Origin: an uncultured Marinicella sp.
GTDB lineage: Bacteria > Pseudomonadota > Gammaproteobacteria > Xanthomonadales > Marinicellaceae
Assembly: GCA_937942365.1 (NCBI GenBank)
Contig: CALDFB010000182.1
Span: forward strand, 1 to 37,736
Length of the DNA stretch: 37,736 nucleotides
Direction: 5' to 3'
The position numbers and the translations under genes are program-made. This document shows positions 4,322 through 23,087 of this stretch, piece after piece (the first letter of the stretch is position 1; every line of letters begins with the position of its first letter). Under the pieces are notes generated by a model. It did not search any database. It was not told the origin of the DNA and saw only the letters and a program-made list of their open reading frames with translations.

Positions 4322-4421
4322 ATCTTTTAATAAGTTTTAAGATTGTATCAACCTCCTTAAAAATTAACCACCTAATATCCAACAGCAATCAATAGTCTTT
4401 AATAAACTTGCTGGGGTTCAG

Positions 4422-4482
4422 TTATTATTCAGCCAAAATCAGTAAATTAGGAAGAACAACAATAACAACAGGAGATTCAAAA
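4422..4482 (+). promoter_or_regulatory. Leader/promoter region duplicated upstream of both Tyr/His-rich genes
   Basis: This 5' region shares blocks in the same order with 5021-5089: TTATTATTCAG (containing a TATTAT -10-like hexamer), then CAGTAAATT, then AACAACAGGAGATTCAA ending at the start codon. No good -35 is evident. Conservation outside coding sequence suggests the same transcriptional or translational control for both genes. The GGAG in the last block is the ribosome binding site and fixes the start at 4483. Confidence 0.6.
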
Positions 4483-4839
4483 ATGAAATCTTTAAAAACT
4501 TACCTCACCCTCACAGCACTGATATTCAGTCTATCAGCAACAGCACAACGTAACCATGACCGCAGCCACCACAACTCTGGCAATAAACAACTTCACTCTC
4601 AAAAACACTACAATGAGTACATACAGCCAGTCCGGTACTATAAACACGGCAACTACGGCCATGGCTACAGATATGGCAAGAAATATTACGGTGGTTATGG
4701 ACGTGGTTACAAACACTATGGTTATTACAACAAATACAACCGTTACAAGCGAAGTAACCGGGCTTACAAACGCAACTATTACAAATCAAAAAGATATTAT
4801 AGAAACAAATACCGTCGCTATAATCGCTACCATTACTGA
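4483..4839 (+). CDS. Small secreted Tyr/Arg/Lys/His-rich protein
   Basis: 118 residues from the ATG at 4483, chosen because a GGAG site precedes it and a signal peptide (MKSLKTYLTL through ATAQ) begins there; the frame is open further upstream. The mature part is low complexity and strongly basic, dominated by Tyr, Arg, Lys, His, Asn and Gly (GHGYRYGKKYYGGYGRGYK), with no Cys. No known fold or enzyme motif is seen. Its final residues (RNKYRRYNRYHY) resemble an internal part of the next gene's product, which is longer. Leader, signal peptide and terminator stem are all shared with that gene, so the two units arose by duplication. Metal binding, adhesion or a matrix role are possible but unproven. 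Confidence 0.75.
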   Translation: MKSLKTYLTLTALIFSLSATAQRNHDRSHHNSGNKQLHSQKHYNEYIQPVRYYKHGNYGHGYRYGKKYYGGYGRGYKHYGYYNKYNRYKRSNRAYKRNYYKSKRYYRNKYRRYNRYHY

Positions 4840-4885
4840 ATAATGTACCATTCACAATGGTGTGAATCACGTTTAAACACAATTC

Positions 4886-4910
4886 CAAGGGCTCTGAAGA
4901 GCCCTTTTTT
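4886..4910 (+). terminator. Rho-independent terminator
   Basis: A GGGCTC stem, TGAA loop and GAGCCC return (4889-4904) are followed by six T residues. It lies about 50 bases after the first Tyr-rich gene. The same stem sequence terminates the second unit. Confidence 0.9.
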
Positions 4911-5020
4911 ATCCCCTAACTTTTCCTCATACTCACAAATAATTGTGTTGATTAATCTACACATTAACCTCCTGACTTTCCATAAGCGATTATGAAGCTT
5001 AACCTTTTCTGAACAGGTTT

Positions 5021-5089
5021 TTATTATTCAGTTTTGATTCAGTCATAACCAGTAAATTGGGATTTACAGTAACAACAGGAGATTCAATC
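5021..5089 (+). promoter_or_regulatory. Second copy of the duplicated leader
   Basis: This is the counterpart of 4422-4482: TTATTATTCAG at 5021-5031, CAGTAAATT, then AACAACAGGAGATTC just before the ATG at 5090. It contains the ribosome binding site GGAG. A TTAACC at 4999-5004 is a weak -35 candidate 17 bases before TATTAT. Confidence 0.6.
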
Positions 5090-5902
5090 ATGACATCTTT
5101 TAAAACATATTTAACCGTAATCGCGATGACGTTCAGCATCACAGCTTTGGCTGATCGCGGTAGAGACAGCGGTTATCATAACAACGATAAAGACCACCGA
5201 CATGCACAAAAGCAAAGCGGTAAAAAACACTCGCATAATAACCGCAGCTTCAAAGGCCAACACAGTGCACGCCAACAAGCCAGTGGCAGTAAACATCGCA
5301 ACAACAGCTACAATGACCGCGTTTATAACGGCCAAAGAAACAACCATGGTAACAATCATCGCCATGGCCAAACCTACAACGAACGTGCATACAACAGAAA
5401 AGGCAATAAGCATAACTCCCGACATGGCCAACGTGGTTTCAATGGCGACTACCGTTCTAACCGCCGCTTTGACCACAGTAACCGTCGCCATAACAGCTAT
5501 GGCTACAACAATAATTACAACCACAGTCGTGGGCAGCACAACAGATACAGTAACAGGTATGATCATGGCTACATAACTCACAACTACTACAAGCCTAAAA
5601 AGTATTACAAAAAATGGAAAAAGTGGAACAAGCACAACCGCAGATACTGGAAAAACAAATACCGTCACTTTAACAACTACCATACCTATCGTGATGATTA
5701 CTATCGGTATCGCCCAATTCGTGGCCTAGGTCACTACTTTGATCGCCCAGGTTACGGTTATGGTCATTGGCATGAAGGCGACTGGTGTATCAACTACCAC
5801 AATGAGGACTATTATCGTGACTACTACAGCTACTACCCATACCATGATGGCTGGAGACATGGTGATGGCGACTTCGGCATCTGGTTCAGTTTCAACCTTT
5901 AA
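5090..5902 (+). CDS. Secreted Tyr/His/Asn/Arg-rich protein, longer paralogue
   Basis: 270 residues from the ATG at 5090, placed by the GGAG site and a signal peptide (MTSFKTYLTVIAMTF to TALA). Residues ~25-150 are His/Asn/Arg/Ser-rich low-complexity sequence with imperfect repeats around YNxRxYNxxxNxH. Residues ~165-205 are basic and Tyr-rich (KKWKKWNKHNRRYWKNKYR) and match the end of the preceding gene. The last ~60 residues differ: acidic and aromatic (GYGYGHWHEGDWC, DYYRDYYSYYPYHDGW), with a single Cys. No database family is recognised. High His content suggests possible metal binding; this is inference only. It has its own terminator and, with the previous gene, forms a tandem pair of complete transcription units. 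Confidence 0.75.
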   Translation: MTSFKTYLTVIAMTFSITALADRGRDSGYHNNDKDHRHAQKQSGKKHSHNNRSFKGQHSARQQASGSKHRNNSYNDRVYNGQRNNHGNNHRHGQTYNERAYNRKGNKHNSRHGQRGFNGDYRSNRRFDHSNRRHNSYGYNNNYNHSRGQHNRYSNRYDHGYITHNYYKPKKYYKKWKKWNKHNRRYWKNKYRHFNNYHTYRDDYYRYRPIRGLGHYFDRPGYGYGHWHEGDWCINYHNEDYYRDYYSYYPYHDGWRHGDGDFGIWFSFNL

Positions 5903-8706: not shown

Positions 8707-8855
8707 CTTAAACTCAGTCTTTTAACGTTCATTACCAACCTAAAAAAACCATATATATTTTAAGGGTTTAAGTGAAGTACTTCATATTTATTCACATTTT
8801 TTGTGATATTTCACCTCTGGCCTGTTCTACTTTTTACTTCACACTGAAAAACAAA

Positions 8856-9626
8856 ATGGGCCTGAGAAAAAAATTCAACCTACTATTGGTCATTTGCCTG
8901 GCGCTCAGTTTTTTTGTCATCTATTGGTGTCACAAAGAATCTGTGTTGTTAAAGACCGAAATGAATTTAACCCATCAAGCTGAAATTGCCTTTGAAATAA
9001 CTGAATCAATAAGAACTTACAATGAAAATGAAGTCCGCCCATTAATCAACAATGCAAACTCCGGGTTCTTGCCCCAAACTGTTGGTTCATATGCAGCCAC
9101 ACAGGTCATGAAGTCTGTGACAAAAATGGTCCCATCCTTGCATTATAAAGTGGCGATTGATGAAACCGAAATAGATATATACAAACCCAATATCTGGCAA
9201 CAAAACATCATTGAACAGTTCAAAAACGACTCGACTTTACCGATAATAAACGACAAAGTCGCTGATGAAGAAGGGCGTTTTTTGGTTTATGCGAAACCCA
9301 TATTAACCAATGACAAGGTCGTCGGTACTAAAATAGTTCGAATCAATGAAGAGGATTTATACAGTGCTGTTGATAAAAACGTATTCCTATTTTCTGGCAT
9401 AGTTCTGGGTTTGTTGTTTGCAGTCTTCATATTTCTGAATTTAGTGATGAATATTTTAGTTTTTAAACCGCTTAATGCTTTGGCTGAACAAAGCAATAAA
9501 ATCAGCCAAGGACAGTCTAAAATAGAAGAGCTTGAGGTCAGTGGACAAGATGAAATCAATCAAGTTGCTGCCTCATTCAACCGCATGCAAAGAAGCCTTA
9601 AAGCTGCCATGGGCATGCTCAGTTAA
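8856..9626 (+). CDS. Membrane sensor with Tll0287/DUF3365-like periplasmic domain and HAMP
   Basis: 256 residues from the ATG at 8856; a GTG at 8772 would add 28 residues that disrupt the N-terminal anchor. Transmembrane segments lie at ~7-25 and ~177-198, enclosing a ~150-residue periplasmic domain. That domain begins with a helix (IRTYNENEVRPLI), continues with VGSYAATQVMKSV and IDIYKPNIWQQNIIEQF, and ends with GRFLVYAKPI, the layout of the DUF3365 (Tll0287-like) sensor fold. A CxxCH haem site is absent. A HAMP domain follows (VFKPLNALAEQSNKISQG ... DEINQVAASFNRM). There is no output domain. The Ser/Thr kinase starts 2 bases after the stop, so this is probably its receptor. Confidence 0.82.
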   Translation: MGLRKKFNLLLVICLALSFFVIYWCHKESVLLKTEMNLTHQAEIAFEITESIRTYNENEVRPLINNANSGFLPQTVGSYAATQVMKSVTKMVPSLHYKVAIDETEIDIYKPNIWQQNIIEQFKNDSTLPIINDKVADEEGRFLVYAKPILTNDKVVGTKIVRINEEDLYSAVDKNVFLFSGIVLGLLFAVFIFLNLVMNILVFKPLNALAEQSNKISQGQSKIEELEVSGQDEINQVAASFNRMQRSLKAAMGMLS

Positions 9627-9628
9627 GT

Positions 9629-10756
9629 ATGAATACAACACCTAAAAAAATCAGTAAATACGTCATCAAAAAAATTCTGGGCCAAGGGGCTATGGGCGTA
9701 GTTTATCTGGGGTATGATGAGCAAATCGAACGTTATGTAGCCATTAAAACAGTTGCTTTTGATCAATTAAACCAACAAAGCTCAGGCCAAGAGTTTGCTG
9801 AAAGGTTTATACAAGAAGCCAAGTTATTGGCCAAGTGCACACACCCCAATATTGTCACCATTTTAGAGTTCGGCCAAGAAAATAACATGGCTTTCATGGT
9901 CATGGAATACATCAAAGGACCCAGTCTTAAAGATGTGTTGAAACGAAAACAATCCATCCCTTTGATGTTGGTGATGACGTGGTTTGTCCAACTACTTAAA
10001 GCACTGAATGAAGCCCACTCTCAAGAAATCATTCACCGTGACTTAAAACCTGAAAATATATTATTGGTCAACAATAAAACAACCAAATTAACCGATTTTG
10101 GTATCGCTAAAAGTGATGACAATGAAACCAAAACACAGATTGGCATTACCGTTGGAACACCTAAATACATGTCCCCAGAACAAATTTTCGGTTCAGCCGA
10201 ACTTGGCCCGTATACTGATATTTATAGCTTGTTCGTTATTTTATACGAGCTATTAGGACATGTCTCAAACATCAACAAATACCAAGCAGAACCTCTGAAA
10301 GGCCTCTCTTCGTTGGCCAAACACAATAAATTTAAACAAGACACCCTGGTACCAGCTCATATGCAGACCTTTATTCTCAAAGGCTTGAGCTTATCTCACA
10401 CGGATCGTTATGAAACTGTAACTGAAGTATTAGAAGACCTGAGGCCTTTGATCAAAAACATACGTGCCCAATCAGATAATCAGGTCACAACAAAAAAAGA
10501 AGAGGATAACACCAGTGGTTTTTTTACTACCGGCACGGTCATAACTCAAAACACTCAAGATTGGATTGTTGAAGAAAACGACTTTGATGCCATGCGAGAC
10601 CACCTTTCTGAACTCATGGGCCCAATGGCTGATTTCATTTTAACCAACGCCTTGAAAAACGCGCACTCCCAAGATCAGTTCATCATGCAAATTGCGGAAA
10701 AAATAGACAATCAAACAATCAGAGAAGTTTTCGTTGAACAATGGCGAACCCTCTGA
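9629..10756 (+). CDS. Hanks-type serine/threonine protein kinase
   Basis: 375 residues, soluble. All catalytic elements of a eukaryotic-like kinase are present: the Gly loop GQGAMGVVYLGYD (18-30), VAIK with Lys40, alpha-C Glu63, HRDLKPEN (136-143), DFG (156-158), GTPKYMSPEQ (176-185) and Asp197. It should be active. The kinase domain ends near 280. A Thr/Ser-rich linker follows, then a ~55-residue helical tail (LSELMGPMADFILTNAL ... IREVFVEQW) resembling the short helical domain appended to many bacterial Hanks kinases. Unlike PknB it has no transmembrane segment or PASTA repeats. It is flanked at 2 and 11 bases by two HAMP-containing membrane proteins, which suggests those provide membrane sensing and this one provides the output. 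Its substrates are unknown. Confidence 0.93.
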   Translation: MNTTPKKISKYVIKKILGQGAMGVVYLGYDEQIERYVAIKTVAFDQLNQQSSGQEFAERFIQEAKLLAKCTHPNIVTILEFGQENNMAFMVMEYIKGPSLKDVLKRKQSIPLMLVMTWFVQLLKALNEAHSQEIIHRDLKPENILLVNNKTTKLTDFGIAKSDDNETKTQIGITVGTPKYMSPEQIFGSAELGPYTDIYSLFVILYELLGHVSNINKYQAEPLKGLSSLAKHNKFKQDTLVPAHMQTFILKGLSLSHTDRYETVTEVLEDLRPLIKNIRAQSDNQVTTKKEEDNTSGFFTTGTVITQNTQDWIVEENDFDAMRDHLSELMGPMADFILTNALKNAHSQDQFIMQIAEKIDNQTIREVFVEQWRTL

Positions 10757-10767
10757 AGGAGACATAA

Positions 10768-12018
10768 ATGAAATTCGGATTAAATAAAAAAATGATGGCT
10801 GTTGGTGCTTTGGTATTGGTAGTTTCTTTTGTGGTCTTATTTTTAAGTAATCGAGCCATCACTCAATTATCAGAAGACATTGAACTATCCAAACAAACCG
10901 GCCAGTTGAATCAGTTATTAAAATTGGTCAAAGAGCAGTCTATTCAGTACGGAGAAAATGCACCTCGGGACTATGAGTCTTACAACCGAGACTTGAAGGT
11001 TTATTACTCCCAACTACAAGAGAATTTGAACACCGCCGACCAACTTATCAAAGAGGCATCTCACGGCTATTTCAACCGCAACCGCAGCACCAATTTTTTA
11101 ATTGATGGCATGTTAATCGAAAACAACAACAAAGCGTTTAAGCAAATGTTGCAGCGCCACCAAGAGTTTGAGAGCGGTTTCAGTGAAGAAATTGGTGAAG
11201 ACATTGAAAACCCTCGGCTTGAGTGGGGTAATAATTATATTATTTCCGATCAAGCAGGGTTGTTTTCACAAGTTTCTACCACTCACATGGTTTTTGAAGA
11301 ATTACTGGTTGCAGAACAAAAAGCCACGGTAAGGTTTAATTGGCTGGCCATCGGTATTATTGCTGCCATGTTGATGCTGATGTTTCTTTGGTTCAACCAA
11401 ACGATTGTTAAAAGGATCATTAAAGTTGCAGGAGCATGTAGAGAAGTCGCACTGGGAAATTATGGACTTAAGATCAAAGACAACAGTCATGATGAAATCG
11501 GACAGTTGGTCAACGACTTTAACCAATTATCAAGCCGCTCTAAAAGTATTTTGGTTATTTTGGATCAACTTCAAACAGCGCCCACCAAACAACATGCCTT
11601 GGATGTTATTCGTACCGAAACACAATCAATAGTTAATTCTTCCAATGCATATTTCCTGACACCAAAAAAGGACTCCTTTATGGTTACTTTGGTTTCGTCC
11701 AATCAATCTCAGAAAGGTCTTATCAACAAAGCTTTGGTTTCAAACGATTCAACCATTGATCACATTTCTACGTTGTCACATATTTCTATTGCAGACGTGC
11801 TTTCACATACCATAACCAATAAGAATGCGCATTTTGCCAAATATTTACTGAATCAAGTTAATGCCAATTCAATATTGGTTTTAAAACTGACCATGGCTGG
11901 TAATACCGGGCTGCTGTTATTAACCAAAAACAGTAAATCTGAATTCAGTGGTGAACAAATCGCCACATTAGAAAGCTTATCACCATTGTTTGCAGATGCT
12001 TTGCTTGGGCACTCTTGA
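10768..12018 (+). CDS. Membrane protein with periplasmic helical domain, HAMP and GAF-like domain
   Basis: 416 residues; AAGGAG lies 5 bases before the ATG. The first transmembrane segment is at ~10-28, followed by a ~160-residue mostly helical periplasmic domain and a second transmembrane segment at ~193-212. A HAMP domain follows (VGxxREVALGNYGLK-like region ... HDEIGQLVNDFNQL). From ~260 to the end is a GAF-like domain, with helix LDQLQTAPTKQHALDVIRTE and a strand-rich core finishing in FSGEQIATLESLSPLFADAL. There is no histidine kinase, GGDEF or methyl-accepting region. As third gene of the kinase operon it is likely a second sensor or scaffold, joining periplasmic and cytoplasmic signals to the kinase. 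That role is inference. Confidence 0.85.
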   Translation: MKFGLNKKMMAVGALVLVVSFVVLFLSNRAITQLSEDIELSKQTGQLNQLLKLVKEQSIQYGENAPRDYESYNRDLKVYYSQLQENLNTADQLIKEASHGYFNRNRSTNFLIDGMLIENNNKAFKQMLQRHQEFESGFSEEIGEDIENPRLEWGNNYIISDQAGLFSQVSTTHMVFEELLVAEQKATVRFNWLAIGIIAAMLMLMFLWFNQTIVKRIIKVAGACREVALGNYGLKIKDNSHDEIGQLVNDFNQLSSRSKSILVILDQLQTAPTKQHALDVIRTETQSIVNSSNAYFLTPKKDSFMVTLVSSNQSQKGLINKALVSNDSTIDHISTLSHISIADVLSHTITNKNAHFAKYLLNQVNANSILVLKLTMAGNTGLLLLTKNSKSEFSGEQIATLESLSPLFADALLGHS

Positions 12019-21733: not shown

Positions 21734-22089
21734 GTCCTGTTCTCCTACTTTTTATACCTGTTACTTACAGTTTTAAGGGCAAGTCTTACAAATCTAAAAG
21801 CAATCAGCCAATATATTCACTGTGTACTTACCTTTGGTTCAATTTTGAAGTGATTAGATCGAAAACCAGGTGCAATGAAAAACCAACCAACCTTTTGTTA
21901 AACCCATAAAATCAAAACCTGAAAATCAGCCTTAATGTTTATTAATCAGTAACGAATAACACCAAGCCTAATTGACCAAGTGATCCAAAACGCCGTAACT
22001 ACCGCTGTACTGAGCACCCTAATTTATAACAACAATGCTAATGAAAGTGATTCTTGTTACCTTTCAAGTTATTGATTTATAAGGTTTTT
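21734..22089. other. Intergenic region with no gene seen
   Basis: About 360 bases between the divergent FG-GAP remnant and bacterioferritin genes. I find no open frame of interest or strong hairpin. It holds the upstream control region of both genes; a TAACAA/TTGTTA inverted pair flanks 22027-22059. Confidence 0.5.
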
Positions 22090-22118
22090 TTGACTTGTTG
22101 TTCATTTTATTATATAAT
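22090..22118 (+). promoter_or_regulatory. Strong sigma70-type promoter for the bacterioferritin operon
   Basis: TTGACT (22090-22095), a spacer of exactly 17 bases and a perfect TATAAT (22113-22118). Transcription would begin near 22125, leaving a leader of about 20 bases before the ATG at 22147. Confidence 0.8.
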
Positions 22119-22146
22119 CCAATTTAACCTCACGAAAAATGCCGTA

Positions 22147-22623
22147 ATGAATTTAAAAGCCAACACCCACCAACAACTTAACCAGGTACTTACCAGTAAG
22201 CTAACCTCTATCAACCAATTTTTCCTGCATGCAAGAATGACCAAGGACTGGGGTTTAAACGAATTGGATTCGACTTTCTATAAAAAATCCATCAAAGACA
22301 TGAAACATGCCGATGCCTTGATCGAACGCATTTTGCTGTTAGGCGGTCTGCCCAATTTACAAAAGTTAGATCATCTAAACATTGGTGAAAACACCGAAGA
22401 GGTTCTCAGCTGCAATGAAAGCTTCCTTAACAAGCAACATGTGGTAATTCAAGATGCGATAGCAGTTTGTGAAGCAAGTCACGACTTTGTCAGCCGAGAT
22501 TTATTAAGTGATATTTTAGCGTATGAAGAAGAAGCGATCGATTGGAATGAAACCCAACTGTCTTTAATCAAAGACATTGGCATACAAAACTACCTACAAG
22601 CCCAAATCGGAGAAAACGAATGA
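22147..22623 (+). CDS. bfrB: Bacterioferritin subunit, haem-ligand type lacking the ferroxidase centre
   Basis: 158 residues from the ATG at 22147; the upstream extension of the frame crosses the promoter and is excluded. The ferritin four-helix fold is clear (SINQFFLHARMTKDWGLNEL, DMKHADALIERIL, NYLQAQIGE). Compared with E. coli Bfr numbering, Met52, the axial haem ligand, is kept. Of the di-iron ligands, however, Glu18 is Lys, Glu51 is Asp, Glu94 is Leu and His130 is Ala; Glu127 and His54 remain. It should bind haem between subunits but not oxidise iron. It overlaps the next gene by 4 bases (ATGA). Such subunits coassemble with an active partner in species with two bacterioferritins. The symbol follows that usage loosely. 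Confidence 0.88.
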   Translation: MNLKANTHQQLNQVLTSKLTSINQFFLHARMTKDWGLNELDSTFYKKSIKDMKHADALIERILLLGGLPNLQKLDHLNIGENTEEVLSCNESFLNKQHVVIQDAIAVCEASHDFVSRDLLSDILAYEEEAIDWNETQLSLIKDIGIQNYLQAQIGENE

Positions 22624-23087
22624 AAGGTCACACTGAAATAATCAATGCACTCAACGAACTGTTGGTCTTTGAACTCACTGCCATGGACCAATATTTTGTT
22701 CATTCTCGCATGTATGATGACATGGGCCTATCTAAGTTATTCGAACGAATAGATCATGAGTTTGATGATGAAAAGGGTCATGCGGCGGTTTTAATTGAGC
22801 GCATTTTATTCCTAGAAGGCACACCTGATTTAACAAAACGAGACGGTTTAAATATCGGCAAAACTGTTCCTGAAATGTTACAAAGTGACTTGGATATAGA
22901 GTACGGTGTACAAGCAGCCCTCAAGAAGGTCATGGCTTTGTGTGAAGAGAAAAAAGATTATGTCACCCGAGACCAGTTGTTGGTGTTGTTAGATGACACC
23001 GAAACAGATCATGCCTATTGGCTAGAAAAACAGTTGAGACTGATTAAGCTCACAGGCTTACCAAACTATTTACAATCACAAATGTAA
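22620..23087 (+). CDS. bfrA: Bacterioferritin subunit, ferroxidase type lacking the haem Met
   Basis: 155 residues. The di-iron ligands are complete: Glu18 (VFELTAMDQYF), Glu51 and His54 (DEKGH), Glu94 (DLDIEYG), and Glu128 and His131 (ETDHAYWLE, shifted by one through a single-residue insertion). Position 52, the haem Met in classical Bfr, is Lys. It should carry the iron-oxidising activity of a mixed 24-subunit shell, with haem supplied by the partner. The start overlaps the first subunit's stop, giving coupled, near-equal synthesis. The role is iron storage and detoxification in the cytoplasm. Confidence 0.88.
   Translation: MKGHTEIINALNELLVFELTAMDQYFVHSRMYDDMGLSKLFERIDHEFDDEKGHAAVLIERILFLEGTPDLTKRDGLNIGKTVPEMLQSDLDIEYGVQAALKKVMALCEEKKDYVTRDQLLVLLDDTETDHAYWLEKQLRLIKLTGLPNYLQSQM

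What the first reader, a model, noticed from the sequence alone, without database searches (positions are those of the whole stretch)
8856..12018. Ser/Thr kinase sandwiched between two HAMP membrane sensors without output domains
Three tightly spaced genes (gaps of 2 and 11 bases) encode a DUF3365-like/HAMP sensor, a soluble Hanks kinase with all catalytic residues, and a second membrane protein with HAMP and GAF-like domain. Neither membrane protein has a kinase, cyclase or chemotaxis output, and the kinase has no membrane or sensing domain. The arrangement suggests a split receptor: sensors signal to a Ser/Thr kinase in place of a histidine kinase. No phosphatase or FHA protein is adjacent.
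Basis: partly seen in the sequence, partly recalled or inferred. Interest (0 to 1): 0.65.

Follow-up and report, generated by a model that had tools for sequence, protein, structure and literature searches.

The report
Kinase plugged into tail-only membrane sensors
A bacterial Ser/Thr kinase carries a small docking domain and sits beside a membrane sensor that has no output of its own; the same pairing recurs in many bacteria with kinases, cyclases or TIR proteins as the output, and it resembles an archaeal receptor-partner pair whose effector has been unknown.

Summary
The three genes are real and tightly spaced (gaps 2 and 11 bases). All three occur together, in order, in the same 5 of 18 genomes of the genus. 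A profile of that domain alone hit 16 further genomes of the class; in all 16 a HAMP protein lies beside it (two partial or cut). In 75 of 80 named loci an output-less sCache-TM-HAMP sensor lies next to a gene with this domain, fused to a Hanks kinase, a class III cyclase, or both; elsewhere to TIR. None of 53 control DUF3365 loci (fused to other outputs, or without HAMP) has it. The domain resembles STAC (best PDB sequence hit, though weak: Af1502), and the sensors' HAMP-plus-tail profile finds Af1503 first, the archaeal HAMP-only receptor encoded beside Af1502. Best reading: a split receptor whose HAMP tail is read by a STAC-like domain on an exchangeable output enzyme. The second sensor (HAMP-GAF) was found only in this genus, and this clade lacks the heme-binding insert of its relatives. 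Physical contact is inferred, not shown.

The parts
8856..9626 (+). Sensor 1: TM - Tll0287-like (sCache type, no CXXCH) - TM - HAMP, ends right after HAMP
   Evidence: Pfam; orthologues in 5 of 18 genus genomes; alignment with heme-type relatives
8958..9308 (+). Tll0287-like periplasmic domain lacking the CXXCH insert
   Evidence: PF11845 7.5e-8; insert absent in 5 of 5 window-clade sensors
9465..9602 (+). HAMP domain of sensor 1
   Evidence: PF00672 4e-10; the family profile finds Af1503 first among solved chains
9582..9623 (+). C-terminal HAMP tail, ...NRMQRSLKAAMGMLS, proposed docking element
   Evidence: S and A of SLxxA invariant in the 22 sequences of A8; motif S-[LMIV]-x-x-[ASC]-[MLIVF] in the last 35 residues of 80 of 80 named relatives
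9629..10756 (+). Hanks-type Ser/Thr kinase with C-terminal STAC-like domain
   Evidence: Pkinase 1.6e-52; catalytic residues invariant
10514..10549 (+). Conserved linker SGFFTTGTVITQ between kinase and STAC-like domain (role unknown; possible phospho-site, inference)
   Evidence: alignments
10550..10753 (+). STAC-like (GPxA) four-helix domain
   Evidence: model pLDDT 85.8, four helices; likeness to Af1502
10768..12018 (+). Sensor 2: TM - ~160-residue periplasmic region - TM - HAMP - GAF-like
   Evidence: HAMP; GAF; genus-restricted among loci scanned; TM segments by eye

Best explanation
A split transmembrane receptor. Sensor 1 is a receptor (probably dimeric, as HAMP receptors are and as one relative was measured to be) whose only cytosolic part is a HAMP domain with a short SLxxAM tail. 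A periplasmic signal changes the HAMP/tail conformation; a STAC-like domain at the C terminus of the soluble Ser/Thr kinase binds that tail, so that the kinase is recruited to, and switched at, the receptor (perhaps by bringing two kinases together for trans-autophosphorylation). Sensor 2 (HAMP-GAF) feeds a second, genus-specific input, possibly a cytosolic small-molecule signal, into the same module. Shown here: gene order, co-occurrence, domain content, likeness to Af1503/Af1502. Inferred: contact of tail and STAC-like domain, direction and sign of control, role of sensor 2, ligand. Because this clade lacks the CXXCH insert, sensor 1 should not be a c-heme NO sensor, unlike what is expected of its relatives.
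For: All three genes in the same 5 of 18 genus genomes, same order. The C-terminal domain profile A4, built from window-clade kinases only, hit 17 of 369 class genomes, 16 besides the own; a HAMP protein lies beside it in 16 of 16 (L098 partial, L110 cut at the contig end). 75 of 80 named sensor loci have a same-strand gene with this domain. Controls: 0 of 20 DUF3365 loci fused to other outputs and 0 of 33 without HAMP. The domain is carried by different outputs: of 80 domain-bearing genes in those 75 loci, kinase 29, kinase+cyclase 28, cyclase 22, other 1; TIR in 3 of 3 loci L046-L048. Tail motif in 80 of 80 named HAMP-only sensors, and by eye in none of the 8 fused controls in which a HAMP was found. 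PDB top hit for the HAMP+tail profile is Af1503 (4gn0, 4e-14), against 0.016 for the same entry with the fused-HAMP control profile. PDB top sequence hit for the domain is Af1502, E 0.077 and 0.6. Af1503-like receptors are HAMP-only and often genomically coupled to Af1502-like STAC proteins (PMC4834066, passages read).
Against: No interaction data. The STAC link rests on weak scores (E 0.077 at best; Foldseek rank 3 at E 2.1; VIA Z 5.0 over 61 residues, below KIX domains at 5.8-6.4). Direct comparison with CbrA's STAC could not be made. Some HAMP-only sensors lack a visible partner: L205 with 4.5 kb on both sides (the same locus as L111), L172 with 3.1 kb downstream but 153 bases upstream, and a cyanobacterial plasmid locus L369. 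The window kinase has one copy of the domain where 56 of 57 named kinase or kinase-cyclase genes have two. Published deletion of STAC in CbrA/CrbS gave no obvious growth difference (PMC5715377, passages). The 80 named loci are not independent: many are close relatives (Zoogloea, Methyloversatilis, Accumulibacter) and at least six appear to be loci already in the training set.
Confidence: 0.75

Rival explanations
1. The sensor and the kinase work in one pathway but do not touch: the STAC-like domain only dimerises the kinase or binds another protein, and the operon serves co-expression.
For: No contact evidence; tandem copies in most kinases would suit self-association. The STAC domain of CbrA packs on an SLC5 transporter, not on a HAMP (PMC13022988, passages).
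Against: The domain follows the HAMP-only sensor whatever the enzyme is (kinase, cyclase, TIR) and is absent near 53 of 53 control DUF3365 genes; HAMP-only sensors need some cytosolic partner (inference).
Confidence: 0.18
2. Sensor 2 is the real receptor of the kinase (or its substrate), and sensor 1 is accessory.
For: Sensor 2 is better conserved than sensor 1 within the genus (56-65% against 37-50% identity to the window protein).
Against: Sensor 2 was found only in this genus (4 of 126 loci), whereas sensor 1 plus domain-bearing output is widespread; sensor 2 lacks the SLxxAM tail (by eye).
Confidence: 0.1
3. Chance neighbourhood of unrelated genes.
For: The genome has many Ser/Thr kinases (29 matches), so a kinase beside a sensor is not rare a priori.
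Against: Conserved order in 5 genomes and the class-wide association.
Confidence: 0.01

Closest known systems
Af1503/Af1502 of Archaeoglobus fulgidus (HAMP-only receptor with stand-alone STAC protein)
   Same: Receptor whose sole cytosolic part is HAMP, with the same RRSLxxAM tail; small four-helix GPxA partner encoded beside it.
   Different: Af1502 is a lone 68-residue protein without enzyme; here the domain is fused to a Ser/Thr kinase and, in relatives, to cyclases, TIR and others. Bacterial, not archaeal.
SLC5-STAC histidine kinases (CbrA, CrbS, RpuS)
   Same: STAC(-like) domain between a membrane unit and a signalling enzyme (passages of PMC5715377, PMC9100948, PMC13022988).
   Different: There one polypeptide with a transporter and a histidine kinase; here two polypeptides, HAMP sensor and Hanks kinase.
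sCache_heme (DUF3365/Tll0287) HAMP protein of Pseudomonas azotoformans
   Same: TM-sCache-TM-HAMP protein without an output domain (PMC12889525; abstract, sections 7, 12, 13 and passages).
   Different: It carries c-heme and binds NO; the window sensor lacks CXXCH. In what I read the preprint names no cytosolic partner (the words 'partner' and 'operon' do not occur in its text). I did not look at the genes beside the P. azotoformans protein itself.
Receptor-type Hanks kinases (PknB/Stk1)
   Same: Hanks catalytic domain, best NCBIfam match NF033483, 234 bits against a cut-off of 450.
   Different: PknB has its own TM and PASTA sensor (recalled; the model name says PASTA); here sensing is on other polypeptides.

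Membership tests
STAC domain | GPx(x)A motif linking helices 1 and 2 | tested here: met
   GP in 163 of 168 domain hits; G invariant and P, A at 90% or more in A7; GP lies between helices 9-23 and 26-37 of the model. The published motif begins with L; the window has M there
STAC domain | Four-helix bundle of two hairpins | tested here: met
   Predicted helices 9-23, 26-37, 41-49, 55-66, pLDDT 85.8; prediction only
STAC domain | Significant sequence or fold match to a known STAC | tested here: inconclusive
   Af1502 top PDB sequence hit but E 0.077 and 0.6; Foldseek rank 3, E 2.1; VIA Z 5.0
STAC domain | Coupled to a HAMP-only receptor or fused to SLC5 | tested here: met
   HAMP neighbour in 16 of 16 and domain beside the HAMP-only sensor in 75 of 80 loci
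sCache_heme (DUF3365/Tll0287) | CXXCH c-heme motif | tested here: not met
   Absent from 5 of 5 window-clade sensors; present in 80 of 80 named relatives
Af1503-type HAMP-only receptor | HAMP is the sole cytosolic part | tested here: met
   Protein ends 7 residues after the Pfam HAMP match
Af1503-type HAMP-only receptor | HAMP plus tail closer to Af1503 than to other solved HAMPs | tested here: met
   For the 22-sequence family profile: 4gn0 4e-14, best other chain (aromatic acid chemoreceptor) 5.5e-7, NarQ 4e-6; the control profile of 8 fused HAMPs puts NarQ first, 1e-6, and 4gn0 at 0.016. Not tested with the window protein alone
Hanks-type Ser/Thr kinase | Catalytic K, E, HRD, N, DFG | tested here: met
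   Invariant in 5 of 5
Hanks-type Ser/Thr kinase | Kinase activity | not testable with these tools
   -

The most novel reading that the evidence does not exclude
Bacteria and archaea share a plug-and-socket signalling system: HAMP-only receptors with a common SLxxAM tail (socket) and a STAC-like domain (plug) that can be mounted on many outputs, so far Hanks kinases, class III cyclases, kinase-cyclase fusions, TIR proteins, a soluble histidine kinase and others. It is a further way, besides direct fusion and CheW-type coupling, to link membrane sensors to enzymes, and it supplies the missing effectors of Af1503-type receptors and of the HAMP-type c-heme NO sensors.
Probability: 0.65. Interest if true: 0.87.

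Novelty: new variant of a known kind. Interest (0 to 1): 0.77.

Why it matters
Af1503 is a model of HAMP signalling that lacks a recognizable effector, and the job of STAC is called unknown or unclear in the passages read. Here a like receptor tail and a like partner domain are attached to enzymes whose activity can be measured, which makes both questions testable. It also gives a candidate output to the HAMP-type c-heme NO sensors of PMC12889525, predicts NO- or redox-controlled Ser/Thr phosphorylation and cyclic-nucleotide signalling in many Proteobacteria, and in some plasmid loci places the pair near type VI secretion genes.

Tried and rejected
Chance neighbourhood: rejected. Names for the kinase C-terminal domain in Pfam and NCBIfam: only weak hits on which members disagree (YbaJ 3 of 5 members, best 4.1e-4; HetE-N 2 of 5, best 0.0011; best CysG_dimeriser 9e-4 in 1 of 72; best 0.012 in 1 of 72). 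KIX domains score as high or higher than Af1502 in the fold comparison; I take this as a common helical arrangement since no sequence or context link to KIX was seen. CbrA's STAC region as a direct test: two SSF searches (36 and 24 genomes) listed no SLC5 gene of histidine-kinase length (longest open frame 780 aa, not examined further), so the comparison was not made. First genome-contig scan with the kinase found nothing. Phylum-wide search with the short domain (5 of 398 genomes including the own) scores at most 15 candidates per genome and is no frequency estimate; in 3 of its 4 other genomes the sensor is adjacent, the fourth locus (L212) is cut at the kinase start. Of 17 further loci fetched because of a sensor hit, 13 have the domain by the iterated model, which had been trained on them; L111 lacks it, L122 and L123 are cut by contig ends, L124 has a GP-containing ORF below threshold. 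Sensor 2 model failed (pLDDT 39.9); its two halves found no convincing solved relative (best 0.37 and 0.016). Viral fold search gave nothing at E <= 0.001. One search, a short DNA pattern, was uninformative and wasted a slot. Tree: HAMP-only sensors separate from fused ones with 99/98 support, but the tool warns that long branches meet there, and the place of the window clade inside is unresolved, so loss of the heme insert is by parsimony only (the fused rows had been picked for having CXXCH).
Full report
In the window, sensor 1 (8856-9626), a soluble Hanks kinase (9629-10756) and sensor 2 (10768-12018) follow each other with gaps of 2 and 11 bases. Pfam gives Tll0287-like plus HAMP, Pkinase, and HAMP; the end of sensor 2 is GAF-like when its orthologues are scanned. 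The catalytic residues of the kinase are complete and invariant in five orthologues.

Conservation. In 18 held genomes of the genus, sensor 1 (E <= 1e-6), kinase (E <= 1e-60) and sensor 2 (E <= 1e-6) each occur in 5, the same 5; the other 13, some of them incomplete, have no match at these limits. In the four relatives the order is the same and the spacing tight; the HIT gene lies upstream in 4 of 4, the AraC and S41 genes downstream in 2 of 4. So this is inherited as a unit.

After the kinase domain come an almost invariant linker and a ~68-residue helical domain with a GPxA motif. I searched 369 genomes of the class with a profile of this domain alone. It hit the own genome and 16 others. 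I fetched all 16. In 15 a gene matched by the sensor/HAMP model lies beside the domain-bearing gene (in L098 only a 69-residue HAMP piece), and in the 16th, L110, the contig begins inside the HAMP end. The domain-bearing proteins are not all kinases: class III cyclases (some below Pfam's cut-off), an ACT-like protein (L098; weak Pfam match) and a protein without a Pfam name (L106). In the three loci of another family of the order that the sensor search had brought in, the neighbour is a TIR protein with the domain (L046-L048; TIR by Pfam in L046 and L047). In L106, L124 and L126 the HAMP protein has no Tll0287-like match (L124 and L126 by Pfam; L106 by the extent of its match); HAMP and tail are what stay constant.

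Named genomes. A scan with 30 sensors kept the best 80 of 258 loci, mostly Beta- and Gammaproteobacteria (Zoogloea, Methyloversatilis, Accumulibacter, Thiothrix, Polaromonas) with three Myxococcaceae. In 75 of 80 a same-strand gene carries the domain; 65 of these 75 gaps lie between -20 and 94 bases. Of the 5 misses, L153 and L187 have a kinase cut by the contig end, L191 has 156 bases left downstream and nothing found in 2 kb upstream, L172 has nothing in 3.1 kb downstream and 153 bases upstream, and L205 is a true miss with 4.5 kb on both sides. Outputs of the 80 domain-bearing genes: kinase 29, kinase plus cyclase 28, cyclase 22, and one other, a GAF-HisKA-HATPase histidine kinase (L139). 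Two copies of the domain are the rule in kinases (28 of 29) and kinase-cyclases (28 of 28); the window has one.

Controls. From the listed rows of a class-wide Pfam search for Tll0287-like (its list was cut) I picked 20 loci in which it sits in a longer frame, 13 of middle length and 20 short (about 4 kb on each side where the contig allowed). None of the 53 has a domain hit (E <= 1e-3), and no HAMP was found in the CXXCH proteins of the 33 middle or short ones. A HAMP was found in 8 of the 20 fused ones, and these 8 lack the SLxxAM tail on inspection, while 80 of 80 named HAMP-only sensors have it in the form S-[LMIV]-x-x-[ASC]-[MLIVF]. The A is not absolute: L109 and L114 have S there.

Link to Af1503/Af1502. 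The profile of HAMP plus tail from 22 output-less sensors finds Af1503 first among all solved chains (4gn0, 4e-14, aligned through RRSLKVAM); the first 17 rows look like Af1503 or constructs with it (several are named only 'HAMP' or 'uncharacterized protein'; that these are Af1503 is recalled), and the next chain is an aromatic acid chemoreceptor at 5.5e-7. The profile of 8 fused HAMPs puts NarQ first (1e-6) and Af1503 rows at 0.007-0.026, so this is not just a general HAMP likeness. Independently, the kinase-borne domain finds Af1502 first by sequence (E 0.077; 0.6), and its model (pLDDT 85.8) matches Af1502 in fold comparison, though not best (rank 3 in Foldseek at E 2.1; Z 5.0, behind KIX domains). 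According to PMC4834066 (passages read), Af1503-type receptors have HAMP as sole cytosolic part and are often genomically coupled to small STAC proteins such as Af1502, with an LGPx(x)A motif and four helices. The domain match alone is weak; that both halves of an adjacent pair point to the same archaeal pair is the strong point.

Mechanism. Most likely the STAC-like domain reads the HAMP tail and so places and switches the kinase at the receptor. Gene order, co-occurrence, domain content and the two likenesses are shown; contact, sign of control and ligand are inferred. Sensor 2 seems confined to the genus: models of its two halves match only the four orthologues among 126 loci scanned. It may add a second input through its GAF.

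Ligand. The 80 named relatives carry CXXCH and, per the preprint PMC12889525 (abstract, sections 7, 12, 13 and other passages), this family binds c-heme and the HAMP-type member from P. azotoformans binds NO. The window clade lacks that insert in 5 of 5, so NO sensing through c-heme is not expected. The preprint calls the motif universal for the family; this clade is an exception at the level of a Pfam match. Whether it is a loss is by parsimony only.

Wider hints. On plasmids, of 12 records hit I opened 6. The 4 proteobacterial ones all have sensor plus kinase with two copies of the domain; in 3 of these 4 type VI secretion genes are near, and in Caballeronia a PP2C phosphatase follows. Of the two cyanobacterial ones, Rippkaea has a HAMP-only sensor without detectable partner and Kovacikia a longer protein.

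Literature. Searches for Tll0287, DUF3365, sCache_heme, Af1502, Af1503, STAC domain with HAMP, STAC with SLC5 and CbrA, the full STAC name, and STAC with kinase and cyclase terms turned up no paper describing STAC or a STAC-like domain on Ser/Thr kinases or class III cyclases, within the listings and passages I saw; the word 'threonine' does not occur in the three STAC papers that I queried for it, and one of them mentions STAC with GGDEF cyclases. The original STAC paper (Korycinski 2015) is cited in what I read but was not itself seen, and subscription journals are mostly not held.

Noticed in passing
L042 2162-2590, L044 10715-11143 and same position in L043, L045; window 8707-8855: Relatives have a small ion channel gene (Ion_trans_2; Pfam-checked in L042 and L044 only) between the HIT gene and sensor 1; the window has only 149 bases there.
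   Followed up: partly
L046 7887-8567, L047 7937-8617, L048 6901-7572: TIR-domain protein with a C-terminal STAC-like domain, next to a heme-type HAMP-only sensor: a possible receptor-controlled TIR protein.
   Followed up: partly
L366, L368, L370 (plasmids of Caballeronia, Paraburkholderia, Skermanella): Sensor-kinase pair lies near type VI secretion genes, in Caballeronia with a PP2C phosphatase directly after the kinase.
   Followed up: partly
L138, L145-L149, L154 and others: Kinase and class III cyclase fused in one protein with two STAC-like domains beside the sensor, common in Zoogloea and Methyloversatilis (cyclase part by my own model; Pfam did not call it in the one scanned, L138).
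   Followed up: partly
L139 3-1595: Soluble GAF-HisKA-HATPase histidine kinase with a C-terminal STAC-like hit upstream of a HAMP-only sensor.
   Followed up: partly
10514-10549: Near-invariant linker SG[FI]FTTGTV[IV]TQ in the five orthologous kinases, rich in Thr; could be a regulatory phosphorylation site.
   Followed up: no
22054-23087: Two neighbouring, similar genes that look like bacterioferritin-type ferritins (by eye).
   Followed up: no
4408-5902: Two neighbouring genes for very His/Tyr/Arg/Asn-rich, probably exported proteins (by eye).
   Followed up: no
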